From NCBI GenBank assembly GCA_037043015.1, contig CM073324.1, positions 14,839,013-14,903,012 of the forward strand: 64,000 bases of DNA. The letters run 5' to 3'. The stretch comes from Bryum argenteum (Eukaryota; Streptophyta; Bryopsida; Bryales; Bryaceae). The notes beneath the pieces were generated by a model that did not search any database, was not told the DNA's origin, and saw only the letters and a list, made by a program, of their open reading frames with translations. Below are positions 39,530 to 46,840 of the stretch, piece by piece; the first letter of the stretch is position 1, and every line of letters begins with the position of its first letter. The position numbers were made by a program, and so were the translations under genes.

Positions 39530-42500
39530 ATGGAGAGATCCATGATCTCATGGCGAGGGTCGAAACGCTCAGCCGGAAATGTTGCAGAAGAGGGCGGTGC
39601 TGATGAACATCAGCAGTTGGGAATTGCGGAGAATTACAAACGTCGTCGGACCAAGTTTGATATATTTATAAACCACCGGGGGCCTGATGGTAAAGCTTTT
39701 GCCTCTCATCTTGAGGAAGCACTGAATACGAGAGGGTACGCTCCTTTCTTTGATCAGAATGGGCTAGGGCAGGGAGAACACTTCCCCGAGGCGATCAAAG
39801 CTGCAATTCAAGATGCGTGCATTCACTTGGCAATATTTACCCCTCTGTACGCGGAGTCCAAGTACTGCCTGGACGAGCTAGCTGACATGGTGGAGTGCGT
39901 AAAGAAGGACTCTAGTGGCACCGTGAAGTTGATACCTATCTTCTTGAAAGTGACTCCTTCAAGTATTCGGTGTGCAGAGAGAGGGCCTTTTCAGGAAGCA
40001 TTCGAGCACCACAAGCAGAGGGATTGAGGCTTGCGCATTCCTGTTTGGAAGGAAGCTCTTCATGATGCTGCCGACATGATGGGCTTTGAAGGTGATAAAT
40101 TCAAGTAAGTGCCTGAGCATCATACATGAATGATACTCTAATATGAAAATAATGGGTTTGTGAGTTGATAGTAGTTTGTGGCATGCTATATTGACGGAAT
40201 GAGGCAAGTATGATTGACTTCTTCATCTTTATTGATGTTGTTTTCCTTAGTGCTAAAGTATAAGTGAGTTTTGTACCGATCTTGAATGTGTGCAGGAATG
40301 AATGTGAGCTCAAAAACGCTATTATTAATCGAGTAGAAGAGATTATTGATTCAATGCGAGTAGACACGACACAATGGGTTCCAACTCACATTGTTGGTCA
40401 TGAGGAGGTGCTTGGATTTGCTCGCAGTAAACTTGAATTGATGGGGGATAATGTCGCCATTCTAGGCATTTGGGGCGCGGGTGGCATTGGCAAAACAACT
40501 CTTGCTAAGAAATTGTACAATTATTACTCAACACAACGATCATTTGGGTACCAAGTTTTCTTGGAGCTGGGCAAAGGTAAAGATGTGGTGCATTTGCAAA
40601 ATCAAGTACTTGAGCTCTTGGGCAAGAAGGAAAAAAATGTGGTTGAAACGTATCGAGGACATCTTTATAAACTAGTCAATGCGAGGGTGCTTGTTGTAGT
40701 AGATGACATTTCCCACGGGGAGCATTTTACGGAGCTTGTACCAGACTTAAAGAAACTAGGAGGTGGAAGTCGTATCATTTTAACATCACGTGACAAGGAT
40801 GTCTTGGATATGGTCTTTAGGGAAGCACCTCAAGCCTACTATTTACTTGAGATGCAGGTGCTCAATCGTGAAGAGTCATTGGAGTTGTTTTGTGTTCATG
40901 CATTTGTGAACAAATCAATCCCAAATCATAAGCACCCGTCGTACCGTCTTGGGAGGAAAGTAGCAGATTTGTGTAGGGGTTTACCATTAGCGTTGGAGAT
41001 CATTGGAAAACACTTATATAATAGGTCGGTAGCAGAGTGGGAAGAGGAAGCTAGAGAAATGAGCCTCAATCCTAAAGTCCTCGACACATTGAGTATCAGC
41101 TACAATGGACTTCAATCCAAGTCGGACAAGATGATGTTCTTGGATGTGGCTTGTCACATGGTTGGGCTTTTGGAGGAAGATGCTATAGATATTTGGGAGT
41201 CTTGTGCGTCACGTGATATGGAACCTCCGTGCAGGCGTGACCGTTGTTTGACCTCTAGAAAGGTGAAGGGCTCTTTGCAAACTTTGAAAAACAAGTCTCT
41301 TGTGAAAGTGGACTATAACGGAAGATTGAGCATGCACGACCTTATCCAAGACATGGGTAGAAAGATGGTTCAAGATGAGTCGGCAGATGAGAAAGGCCGC
41401 GGGCTTGGACAATATAGCCACTTGTGGAATCGGGCTGACGTCGAGGATGTCCTAAATGAAAAGGAGGTAAGTATAATCAGCGTCTCGATGCATAGTAGTA
41501 CACTCCAACATGTCATGCTATTGCTTTTGCAACTTTTGGAAGTATATGATTGATTTCCATTATAGGAGCCTGAGAGGATTATATGGAATTTAACTTATTA
41601 AATCTTTTGGTTTACGGATCAGTTAGGTGTTTTGTAATGTATAAGTGTCTGAGAATGGAACCTCTTGTCTGGAGAATATTGTTATCATATTCTTCAAATT
41701 CCACAAGAAAAAAAATGAGAAATATGTGGGATGGTTTTTCAAAATTTGATTCCATCAATGTACAGGATATATTATTGTTCACATCTTGCGTAATTCGAAT
41801 ATGCTCACTATGTTGGGAAACTTCTCGTCTTGGTCGCTCTTAATTATATTAACAATTATCACTCTTTGATATTGTAGTCTTAAACAATCAAATTTGATCA
41901 AACATAGTGAAGTAAGGTATCTTTAGGAAAAGTATAGTATTGTAAAGGCCCAATATGAAATGAAATTTAGAACATGTCTTTCTTGCTAGCAAATATATTA
42001 TAGTAAAATAGATCACCTACTACCACCATGTTCTAGGACCTCAATTTGCTATTAGAGCTTCCCTTTGAATAGGCGTTATAAAAATCAGCTTCCCAATACT
42101 TTTTTGAGGTGGATCCTCCTTTGCCAAATTGGCTAATGTGCATGTTTTGTTTTTATTTTGTGGTCTTTTACTTTGTATCGATTTGCTTCCACTTGGCTCT
42201 ATGGGATTCACGTGTGAAAATTGGTTAAACATCACATAAGCTTCCACATGGCTGTATGGGATTGACGCTTGAAAATTGGGTAAACATCAAATATTGTTCA
42301 CTACACCATTTGGCACATACATTTCATCATTAACAATATCTACTATCTCACAAAGTATAAGTAAAGAATTTTAAGAACGATACATGTACAATATTTTTCA
42401 CAATTTCTCCCTCAAAAACTGTCTAAGGTTTGTCTAAAATAAAGATATATTCCATCATATTTCTTAAGCAACTTGCCAAAATTTCAATCCGAGTGTAGAC

Positions 42501-45500
42501 AATGCTACAATTTGGAAAGGGAGGTAGGAAACTCGGATTCCAAGACATGTCGGAGGGTATTGTAGTTGACACTTAGTGAGTTCCCCTAAGTAATATCTGC
42601 AAATTGATTTGTAACATTAGAAGATAGCTAATCTAAGCTCAAAATTTTGGATTAAACCTAGTTCTTGTGGAGCTCGGGTCACGAAGGATGCTACTCATAT
42701 TGTAATTCTTATTTACAATTAATGAATGTTGTGAGTGTCCATATCTTTATAAAGATGTAGGTATATTTTCTTATTTAGTGGATATTGGTACTTGGCGCTT
42801 ACGCAGGGAACAAAGGAAGTTCGAGGCCTATCGTTGGTTGGGTTGAATGGAAAGACTTTCATGGCTTCGGCATTTCGGAACATGACCGAGATTCACTTTC
42901 TACTATTAGATGGAGTTTGTATAGAGGGAGACTTTTCACAAATCTCCAAAAAAATTCGTTGGATGCAGTGGAGGAATGCACCTCTTTCGAGCCTGCCTTT
43001 GGAGCTACATTGCTCGAACTTGGTAGTTTTGGATCTCTCGAATAGTAAGAGCCTCACTCAGTTATGGGCAGAACATGATGCATTTCAGGTATGCAATTTG
43101 CGTCTATTATTCACTTCGAACCTCTAGAAAGATACACACAGAATAGACGGTGAATTGGCTATAAAGTATAAGATGGATAATTAAGAAAAAACAAAATTAG
43201 AGTGAGTCTGCATGGTTAGTAAGGTGCTTGTAGATTATTTGAGTTTTGTTTTGTACACTTCATTGTTGTTGTGGAGTCACTTTGCCATACTTGGAGTTTA
43301 CTTCACCGGACAGTTTGCATTATGAAGGTGGTTTTGATTGTTTTTGAGTGTACCTAAATGCAGGTTCCGAGGTTTCTGAAGACTCTGATCCTTGAGAATT
43401 GCACTTCACTAGAGAAGATTCCAGAAAATATCAAGTCTTTGACGAGGTTAAGGATACTCAATCTCCGGTGGTGCAAGAAGCTGACATCTCTACCAAGTTC
43501 TCTTAGAGAACTCAAGGGACTCGTCAGTTTGGACTTGGGATATTGCATGGGCTTGGAGGCTTTGCCTGATGTTGTGGTGGAGCTGCGAGTTCTGGAGACA
43601 TTCTGTATTGATGGATGTGTCAAGATACGAAATCTGCCATCAGATTTTGGAAATCTTAGGACATTGGTTGAATTCTCTGCTATGGCAGTTTTTAGTGTGG
43701 TTGCCTTACCTGATTCTTTTTCCAAGTTAACTCGTTTGGAGAAGCTGGACATGACTAATTGCATATCTTTATCTGAGTTGCCGAGGTCTGTGAAGAACCT
43801 AACGCACTTGATAATGTTTGCTGCAAGTGACACATCTATCCGAGAGTTGCCTAGTGACCTCGGGGATCTCAAGAGACTTCATCACCTAAACCTCGGCCAT
43901 TGCAACCAATTAGAGAGCCTTCCCGACAACTTTGGAGACTTGCAAAATTTAAGCAATCTTGATATGACGAAGAATAAGATATCAAAACTGCCTTATAGCT
44001 TCAAGGATTTGAAACACTTGACGAACCTGAATATGCAAGGAAGCTCTGATCTTGTCGATGTTGAATCTCTACCTGTTTCACTTGTGGAGCTGGAACTTGG
44101 AGATTGCCCCAAGGTGGTAAGAGTTTCTGTCAAGGAGCTATCAAAGCTAAGAATACTTACCTTGTGCAATTGCACAAGCTTGACTAAGTTGGAAGGGATG
44201 GAACATGCGGAGTCCCTCGTGAAATTGAATGTGAGTGGATGCTGTAGACTCTTAGAACTACAAATTGACCTCTTCGGAACAAGAATGACACACTGCTATG
44301 TAAGTGGGAGTGGAGTGTGCGTGAAGTATAGCAACGATTGGAACCAGGTATTCATCATAGTCCTCTAGATTCTTGTCATATCCACTGAAGCTCACTTAAA
44401 GCATTGTGTCCAATATTGAATGCTGAATAGACATTCCAAGTTCTAACATTTCTAAGCTGAATGTATATGAGGACTTTTTTAGGCTGGAGCTCCATTTCTA
44501 CAAGTGGTCAGCTACTATGACCATGCCATGGGGTTTCTTAAGAACTCGATGACCAAGAAGATAAATGCAATGCAAAAGACAAATGAGTTGTGCATGGAAA
44601 CTGGAATCATGTGGAGCACTGTTGCAGCCGTTGTCATTACGGTGGTGGCACACGACCAAGGTTCGTCTGGATACACCGATTCACTTGGGCGATATGATAC
44701 CCTCTTAATGTTTGAAGGGCGAATTGTACGATCAGAGGAAGGATCGGATATGGAAGTATTCAGAAGCTGACTTTTCCGTTTGCGCTCAACAGACTATAGA
44801 GATCAGGTATACTTGTGCACATTACGCAGATCACACCCGCTCATTCAAAGGCTGAAGCAGGGCGACAAGCTGTGTGTTTACGCACTCCCTATATGTGACA
44901 AATTTGGAATCACAGTTATGCAAGGACACATTCATGTTGCGTACGACGAGGATGCATCAGAAGATCCATTTCAAAATTTGCTCTTGAGAGATAATTTGAG
45001 CAGTAGTTTCCGAGCACAACCTTTTCCAGAAGTCCGGCAAGCATTCATCGAAAACCGTCGCATCAAATTCACTGTCAAAAATAGTCATAGTAATCTGCCT
45101 ATCGAAGGATATGGACAAATTGTATTTCAACCTGTCTCCGTCCAAGCCAATGGTCGAGCCCTCTTCTCAAGAATAGTAAGTTCCACTACTTCAATTATTG
45201 GAGAGCTTACTATCGTTCTCTTTCCCTTGAGTTGGCTAACAATTCTCTGTGTTGCAGGTTATGGGCTTTAGTACCTGCGGAATAATTTGTAATATTTGCG
45301 ACGAAGTCATTTCTGAACGTGGTTACCATTGCAACACATGTGCTGATTTTGACATATGTCAGAGTTGCAAGGAGGTGAAGCAAACAGTCCATTTGTCTGC
45401 CCATCTCTTGACCGAATTTGTGACGAAGGGCCATAAGAAGAATTTTGGGTATGTTGTGGATGATTTGTGGTGGAGTGAGAACTTCCCGGCTCCGGCTGAT

Positions 45501-45593
45501 CCTTCTTGTGCTAGTATGAGGAGAATTTATGCTGCGGATCGATCATGTGAATCAATCCCAAATTACAAGATAGGCTACATTGTGGACGTGTGA
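39530..45593 (+). CDS. TIR-NB-ARC-LRR immune receptor with C-terminal ZZ zinc finger; two in-frame stop codons
   Basis: Intracellular plant immune receptor. Exons 39530-40104, 40296-41466, 42807-43088, 43364-44347, 44483-45175 and 45258-45593 join in one frame of 1347 codons including the stop, but codons 166 (TGA, 40025-40027) and 1100 (TGA, 44768-44770) are stops. The TIR domain (FDIFINHRGPDGK ... YCLDELADM) keeps the Glu equivalent to the catalytic NADase residue. NB-ARC: P-loop GIWGAGGIGKTT, kinase-2 VLVVVDDI, RNBS-B GGGSRIILTSRD, GLPLAL, and MHDLIQDMG. The LRR exon has about a dozen repeats (for example LRILNLRWCKKLTSLPSSL). An unrecognised segment of ~230 residues follows, then a ZZ-type finger with CNIC, CNTC, DFDICQSC and HLSAH. 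Family knowledge: the TIR motif is of the moss type. Either the locus is a recently disabled gene, or it expresses a TIR-only product of 165 residues. The domain calls are firm; the intactness is not. Confidence 0.85.
42184..42291 (+). repeat. Two tandem copies of a ~54-bp unit in the second TNL intron
   Basis: GCTTCCACTTGGCTCTATGG and GCTTCCACATGGCTGTATGG start two consecutive units, each ending in AAAATTGG(T/G)TAAACATCA. They lie in the 1.34-kb intron between the NB-ARC and LRR exons. Confidence 0.7.
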
Positions 45594-46394
45594 GAGTAAG
45601 TTTTAAAGAATCACTGTTCGAGCATCGGAACTTGCACTGTGTTGTATCTGCAGGAAATAAATGACGCTGAGGAGTTGGAAGTCAAACATCATATATTTAT
45701 GTGATTTGCCGCTCCGCAATACCGAAGCTTCTGAAATACTGGTCTACAAACGGGGTTCATGTCCTCTCTTGTGTGTGCAACGGCTGAGGATGCCAGACTA
45801 ACCGCTCGCGGTTCGCCCACTAGAGTTGAAACATCCATGCCGCTCCGTAACTCTCCCGCTTCCGCGCCCGATGTCGCTTCCTCTGGGTTCCGGAGCTCGC
45901 ACAAGCTGCTCCCGCCTCCGACGTCCTTCAGTGCTCATCGTCGCTATTTAGCAAGCTTTCAGCATGAGCGCAAGAACATGCACGTGCTGTTGCACAAAGA
46001 TTTCGTGAAGTCTCCAAGACGAAGTGCAATTTCAGAAGACTTCCTAGAAATATGCAGTATAATGTTCTAAGCACAAGGTAAATTATAAGTTGCGGCATTC
46101 TGAGACCTCTTGAGCCTTGAATGGGAGGGGTAGCTCATCACATCTTTGTTGCAAAATCAATCGATATTTTCTCAAGAAGCCGCCAGGAGAACGATATTCT
46201 AGGCAACAATTGGTTTTTATCGCAAAAGACAGCAATTGGTAATAGTGCAGTGGGACAACAATTGGTTCTTTTTACACAAAATCATTTCTGTTTGATTTAA
46301 GGTAGTATCTGATCTTGCTTTATTGGGACAGGAATGCATAAAATGTGGTGCCACATGTTCGAAGTTGGTTAGACTTCACTCATTCGCATAGGCA

Positions 46395-46840
46395 AATGAC
46401 ATCGTGCTGGCTGCGATCTGGAAGCACGACTTGTACGATCAAAGGAACGATGGAATGGATATGAAGGTGTTCGAAAGCCGGCTTTACGCATTACGCCACG
46501 CAAATCTTTAAGGATCAAGTGTACATGTGCACGTTACGTAGATTACACCTGCTAATTTAGACTCAAAGGCTGAAGTAGGGCGAGAAGCTTTGTATGTATG
46601 CACTCTCCAGATATCAGAATTGGGAAGTGACAATCATGCAAGGACACAATCATGTTGGTTACGACGAGGATACGCCGGAAGACCCATTTCAAAATGTGCT
46701 CCTAAGAGATAATTTGAGTAACAATTTCGAGTAACAAGTTAAGTTTCAATGGGTTCACTGTTCGACCATTGGAGGTTGCAGTGTCTTGTCTTAGCGACAA
46801 ATGAAAGGCGGTGGAGGGCTGAAGATGAAACATCATCACC
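46395..46840 (+). pseudogene. Decayed duplicate of the TNL tail and 3' UTR, lacking the ZZ exon
   Basis: The stretch aligns with 44690-45010 of the TNL gene (TTGTACGATCA, AAGGACACAATCATGTTGG, CCATTTCAAAATGTGCTCC, CTAAGAGATAATTTGAG). Several frameshifts and stops prevent translation. At about 46748 it jumps to sequence matching the TNL 3' flank near 45610 (TCACTGTTCGA...), so the exon with the zinc finger is missing. It is a partial tandem duplication that has since decayed. At the position of the second TNL stop it reads CGG (46479-46481). Confidence 0.75.

What the first reader, a model, noticed from the sequence alone, without database searches (positions are those of the whole stretch)
45258..45593. 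A ZZ-type zinc finger is fused to the C-terminus of a TIR-NB-ARC-LRR receptor
The last exon of the TNL gene encodes an evident ZZ finger (CNIC, CNTC, DFDICQSC, HLSAH) in phase with the preceding exon. Fusions of extra domains to plant NLRs often act as integrated decoys that mimic pathogen targets. ZZ fingers bind N-terminal degrons, histone tails or SUMO in other proteins, so an effector target of that kind is conceivable. I know of no characterised NLR with a ZZ integrated domain; that is a memory statement, not a search.
Basis: partly seen in the sequence, partly recalled or inferred. Interest (0 to 1): 0.8.

Follow-up and report, generated by a model that had tools for sequence, protein, structure and literature searches.

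The report
Plant immune receptor with ZZ finger
A small family of plant TIR-type immune receptors carries a ZZ zinc finger as its last exon, probably as a built-in sensor for pathogen interference, but the copy in this window is broken by two early stop codons.

Summary
Window 45258-45593 matches Pfam ZZ (PF00569, 31.3 bits, cut-off 21.4) with all eight zinc ligands, and splices in phase 0 to a TIR-NB-ARC-LRR gene. The architecture is not an accident of one locus. All 11 genes found in the NB-ARC clade at 76% identity or more have a ZZ match 3.6-5.3 kb downstream on the same strand. One, C4:14667902-14673932, is open across six exons as a predicted 1344-residue TIR-NB-ARC-LRR-ZZ protein. The other ten each show at least one stop or break. 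Two more distant TIR-NB-ARC loci share the post-LRR exon but have Methyltransf_FA domains downstream instead of ZZ, which looks like tail exchange. Integrated sensor or decoy is the best reading but is not shown. ZZ domains in NLR-like proteins were already listed for Physcomitrella (PMC7145615) and rice (PMC3532234), so this is a new member of a known kind. The species was not identified.

The parts
39530..40104 (+). Exon 1, TIR domain (starts ATG; phase-2 donor)
   Evidence: Pfam TIR 8.1e-21; splice sites and frame shared by paralogues
40025..40027 (+). Premature in-frame TGA in the TIR exon; paralogue A has CGA
   Evidence: also reported as 1 TGA (same assembly)
40296..41466 (+). Exon 2, NB-ARC and winged helix
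   Evidence: Pfam NB-ARC 1.1e-31, WHD_ROQ1 6.8e-11
42807..43088 (+). Exon 3, start of LRR region
   Evidence: 86-96% identical to the same exon in five paralogues
43364..44347 (+). Exon 4, LRR
   Evidence: Pfam LRR_14 9.7e-30
44483..45175 (+). Exon 5, post-LRR exon, predicted beta-sandwich, no Pfam family
   Evidence: model made for paralogue A
44768..44770 (+). Premature in-frame TGA in the post-LRR exon
   Evidence: 1 TGA (same assembly)
45258..45593 (+). Exon 6, ZZ zinc finger plus a conserved tail of about 57 residues, ends in TGA
   Evidence: Pfam ZZ 1.7e-07; paralogues
46342..46803 (+). Decayed second copy of the post-LRR exon downstream of the gene
   Evidence: 43% identity to the exon of copy A, with five stops

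Best explanation
This is one broken copy of a small TNL subfamily whose last exon is a ZZ finger. Shown: the order TIR, NB-ARC, LRR, beta-rich exon, ZZ in six assembled copies; a ZZ tail in all 11 genes found; one open copy; intact zinc ligands in copies A, W (the window copy), B and C. Inferred: in a working copy the ZZ is an integrated sensor. It mimics, or is, a ZZ domain that a pathogen effector targets, or it binds the free N-terminus of a protein. Binding or interference at the tail would release NB-ARC autoinhibition, oligomerise the receptor and switch on TIR NADase signalling (established for other TNLs, recalled). The window copy is a pseudogene, or at most makes a short TIR fragment.
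For: ZZ match and TNL domains. Of 76 NB-ARC matches to copy A, 12 (11 genes) are at >=76% identity and all 11 genes have the ZZ tail; the other 64 are at <=40% and no ZZ hit lies near an NB-ARC outside the clade. Open 1344-residue copy A. Phase-0 junction between post-LRR and ZZ exons in six of six assembled copies, five with a GT donor and copy C with GC. All eight ligands kept in A, W, B and C, finger dN/dS 0.42, bootstrap 0.19-1.02. Acidic residues that p62 ZZ requires for N-terminal Arg (D129, D147, D149; PMC6197226 passages) align to D12, D30, D32 of A. Two TIR-NB-ARC loci sharing the post-LRR exon have PF12248 downstream instead of ZZ.
Against: Ten of 11 copies show at least one stop or break, so the family may be dying. 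dN/dS of the ZZ exon is high (0.55, 0.62), the finger's bootstrap interval reaches 1, and the tail is not clearly constrained. Two ZZ tails have no NB-ARC match upstream. The window copy has Asn where p62 has D129, copy B has Asn at D149, and p62 R139 is Gly in A. No transcript, effector or binding data. The AlphaFold model of the ZZ exon failed (pLDDT 30.7).
Confidence: 0.55

Rival explanations
1. The ZZ exon is a separate small gene of about 110 residues lying just downstream of the TNL.
For: The exon has an ATG at its second codon in W, A, C and J.
Against: The gap to the TNL is only about 80-90 bases with splice signals in all six assembled copies. Copies B and D have no ATG at that place. 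21 of 23 family ZZ matches follow an NB-ARC of this clade.
Confidence: 0.05
2. The ZZ is a structural or regulatory tail (stability, nuclear placement, SUMO or partner binding) of a normal TNL and not a decoy.
For: Found with all 11 genes of the clade on two chromosomes, moderately constrained finger; solved ZZ structures include SUMO1- and histone H3-linked ones.
Against: Two more distant TIR-NB-ARC loci with the same post-LRR exon do without it and have another domain downstream, more like exchangeable bait than a needed part.
Confidence: 0.3
3. The whole family is a relic: the fusion formed, spread by duplication and has no present function (this overlaps with the other readings, which concern what it did).
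For: Ten of 11 copies broken; high dN/dS in the last two exons.
Against: Copy A is open over 1344 codons and mean NB-ARC dN/dS is 0.27.
Confidence: 0.25

Closest known systems
NLR-IDs (plant NLRs with integrated domains), including NLR-like proteins with ZZ PF00569 in Physcomitrella patens (PMC7145615)
   Same: Extra non-canonical domain in an NLR; the same Pfam domain is named.
   Different: The section read gives no gene, architecture or copy number for ZZ; here the order TIR-NB-ARC-LRR-ZZ, 11 genes and one open copy are described.
Rice NBS-LRR Os.24417 with 'Zinc finger, ZZ-type' (PMC3532234, table passage)
   Same: NBS-LRR plus ZZ.
   Different: Listed without TIR; relationship not tested.
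Grass major integration clade MIC1 (PMC5819176, abstract and outline only)
   Same: Related receptors with different fused domains.
   Different: Here only two tail types, ZZ and Methyltransf_FA; fusion of the latter to its TNL was not tested by splicing.
ROQ1/RPP1-type TNLs with C-JID
   Same: TIR-NB-ARC-LRR followed by a beta-rich exon (ROQ1-like winged helix).
   Different: No C-JID match to the exon, and a further ZZ exon.
p62/SQSTM1 and CBP/p300 ZZ domains
   Same: Ligand pattern; acidic residues for N-terminal binding in copy A.
   Different: p62 R139 is Gly in copy A; no binding data.

Membership tests
ZZ-type zinc finger (PF00569) | Profile match above the curated cut-off | tested here: met
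   31.3 bits against 21.4; paralogue A 30.0
ZZ-type zinc finger (PF00569) | Eight Cys/His zinc ligands | tested here: met
   Conserved in A, W, B, C; fragment E has lost two, one Cys and one His
ZZ-type zinc finger (PF00569) | ZZ fold | tested here: inconclusive
   AlphaFold pLDDT 30.7
TNL receptor | TIR, NB-ARC and LRR in order on one strand | tested here: met
   gene model
TNL receptor | Open reading frame through all exons in the window copy | tested here: not met
   TGA at 40025 and 44768
TNL receptor | Open reading frame in a paralogue | tested here: met
   Copy A, 1344 codons
TNL with C-JID (PF20160) | C-JID match after the LRR | tested here: inconclusive
   No match of the exon or in the genome (where no control genome rang either); model is all-beta in most of its confident core
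NLR-ID (integrated domain) | Foreign domain in the same transcript as the NLR | not testable with these tools
   Only predicted from splice sites and phase
Integrated decoy | Domain mediates effector recognition | not testable with these tools
   No effector or interaction data

The most novel reading that the evidence does not exclude
The TNL-ZZ receptor is a direct reader of free protein N-termini. Its ZZ groove, with the acidic residues that p62 needs for N-terminal arginine, would bind a new N-terminus made by a pathogen protease, or an exposed histone H3 or SUMO N-terminus, and so trigger TIR signalling; related TNLs exchange ZZ for Methyltransf_FA at the same tail site.
Probability: 0.08. 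Interest if true: 0.85.

Novelty: new member of a known kind. Interest (0 to 1): 0.42.

Why it matters
It gives a concrete gene set, with one open copy, for testing whether NLRs with ZZ tails sense pathogens through the ZZ. ZZ domains in other proteins read N-termini, histone tails and SUMO, which are plausible effector targets.

Tried and rejected
Separate ZZ gene: rejected on splice signals, spacing and copies without ATG. Donor of the ZZ: the best non-family hit is a ZZ near a TAZ finger (C1:34.1M; 42%, query residues 9-46; 'HAC/CBP type' is my recalled label for ZZ plus TAZ), then a ZZ at C3:21.9M that by eye is close to the PDB sequences named BIG; a tree of ten ZZ sequences had supports of 23-80 and resolved nothing. 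The post-LRR exon profile gave six weak PDB sequences, best a potassium channel at E 0.0018, taken as unrelated; Foldseek's 50 listed matches were mostly unrelated beta-sandwich proteins, TM by query length 0.23-0.39. AlphaFold of the ZZ exon failed. NCBIfam gave only two hits far below their cut-offs. Seven other NB-ARC loci scanned for lineage clues did not identify the plant. In one search the start of the LRR exon of copy C was placed wrongly, so stops after that point in copy C were ignored; its TIR stop stands.

Full report
Observation. Window 45258-45593 encodes 111 residues and a stop. Residues 9-43 match Pfam ZZ PF00569 at 31.3 bits, E 1.7e-07, cut-off 21.4. The eight ligands (CxxC, CxxC, CxxC, HxxxH; pattern recalled) are present and shared with three paralogues. 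Upstream exons on the same strand match TIR (8.1e-21), NB-ARC (1.1e-31), a ROQ1-type winged helix (6.8e-11) and LRR (9.7e-30). Exon borders follow consensus splice sites: 39530-40104, 40296-41466, 42807-43088, 43364-44347, 44483-45175, 45258-45593.

The window copy is broken. In-frame TGA codons lie at 40025-40027 in the TIR exon, where paralogue A has CGA, and at 44768-44770 in the post-LRR exon. Searches report the same stops, but from the same assembly, so assembly error cannot be excluded without reads.

The architecture recurs. The genome that holds the window (258.8 Mb, 25 contigs) was searched with the ZZ exon: 29 matches at E up to 1. Of these, 23 lie in clusters on C4 and C6; 21 of the 23 have an NB-ARC match 3.6-7.0 kb upstream on the same strand, and 2 have none. 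The other 6 lie at least 0.69 Mb from any NB-ARC match or on a contig with none. Searched with the NB-ARC exon of copy A, the genome gives 76 matches at E up to 1e-20: 12 matches, representing 11 genes, are at 76-100% identity (two of these genes are partial or split), and the remaining 64 are at 40% or less. All 11 genes have a ZZ match, the nearest 3.6-5.3 kb downstream; no ZZ hit lies near the others. These searches look exon by exon and score only the best candidates, so counts are lower bounds.

One copy is open. Six copies (the window's W, and A, B, C, D, J) were assembled from fetched pieces. Copy A, C4:14667902-14673932, reads without a stop through six exons as a 1344-residue TIR-NB-ARC-LRR-post-LRR-ZZ protein. 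In W, B, C, D and J the frame is broken. The five C6 genes that were not assembled each show at least one stop or split exon. So ten of 11 appear damaged.

One gene or two. The junction between the post-LRR and ZZ exons is phase 0 in six of six assembled copies, with a GT donor in five and GC in copy C, and an AG acceptor in all six. The introns are about 80-90 bases. Copies B and D lack the ATG at the start of the ZZ exon. A separate ZZ gene is therefore unlikely.

Selection. Mean pairwise dN/dS is 0.34 for TIR (A, W, B, D, J), 0.27 for NB-ARC (all six), 0.22 for the first LRR exon (all six), 0.50 for the second LRR exon (A, W, D, J), 0.60 for the post-LRR exon (A, W, C, D) and 0.62 for the ZZ exon (A, W, B, C, D and the fragment E at C6:5602732). 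Copies were left out of a set where the exon is broken in frame or, for the LRR exon of copy C, was badly placed; stop codons were skipped. For the finger alone in A, W, B and C it is 0.42, bootstrap 0.19-1.02, and for the tail after the finger 0.65, 0.34-1.54. The finger was probably kept by selection for part of its history; the evidence is modest, and broken copies raise these values.

Related loci carry another tail. The post-LRR exon of copy A finds two further loci, C7:4433588-4434052 and C6:7529653-7530123, at 36-40% identity; both have TIR and NB-ARC matches upstream (their LRRs were not examined). Neither has a ZZ hit; both have a long open frame with two Methyltransf_FA domains (PF12248) downstream on the same strand. 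Splicing to the receptor was not tested. This fits exchange of tail domains after a shared post-LRR exon, as described for the grass MIC1 clade (PMC5819176, abstract and outline).

Mechanism. p62 ZZ needs D129, D147 and D149 to bind N-terminal arginine (PMC6197226, passages). In the alignment these fall on D12, D30 and D32 of copy A; R139 falls on Gly. Copy C keeps all three, the window copy has Asn at the first and copy B Asn at the third. So copy A could bind a free N-terminus; no binding was measured. TIR signalling after NB-ARC release is recalled knowledge of other TNLs, applied here by inference.

Post-LRR exon. No Pfam match. The AlphaFold model of copy A's exon has mean pLDDT 54.4, with block means of 66-87 over residues 31-60 and 71-150, all strands apart from one short helix. 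Foldseek gave mostly unrelated beta-sandwich proteins at TM 0.23-0.39 by query length. Its place is that of C-JID in ROQ1 and RPP1, but identity with C-JID is not shown; the genome search for C-JID found none, and no control genome rang either.

Literature. Searches (phrases combining ZZ, NLR, NB-ARC, TNL, NBS-LRR, integrated domain, bryophyte) listed no functional study of an NLR with a ZZ domain; most listed papers were seen only as titles and abstract starts. PMC7145615 (section 17 read) names ZZ PF00569 among NLR-like genes of P. patens. PMC3532234 (passages) lists a rice NBS-LRR with ZZ. PMC3419713 (one passage) has 'ZZ-type' only in its reference list. [quoted passage not shown] PMC12787737 and PMC8559963 have no occurrence of the ZZ terms tried in the main text. 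Supplementary files could not be read, so details of earlier ZZ-NLRs may exist there.

Limits. No transcripts. Paralogue counts are lower bounds.

Noticed in passing
window 46342-46803; also C4:14675340-14676111, C4:14818660-14819445, C6:5563667-5564546, C6:5932178-5933169: A second, decayed post-LRR exon, outside the window copy with a second ZZ remnant, lies roughly 0.7-2.2 kb downstream of the C4 copies A, C and W and of D; similar remnants lie at C6:5.93M. This suggests an old tandem duplication of the last two exons before the copies spread.
   Followed up: partly
L078 (G000:C6:15830900-15834400): A TIR exon followed on the same strand by four Methyltransf_FA-like repeats (three scored, one seen by eye), with no NB-ARC match nearby; a further match lies on the opposite strand at C6:15834702-15835061. 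Possibly a TIR-Methyltransf_FA protein.
   Followed up: partly
L076 and L077 (C7:4431000-4434300, C6:7529400-7532700): TIR-NB-ARC loci with tandem Methyltransf_FA domains downstream of the post-LRR exon.
   Followed up: partly
C6:5602732-5603091 and C6:5592667-5592942: ZZ tails without an NB-ARC match upstream; the first has a post-LRR remnant, so these are probably gene fragments.
   Followed up: no
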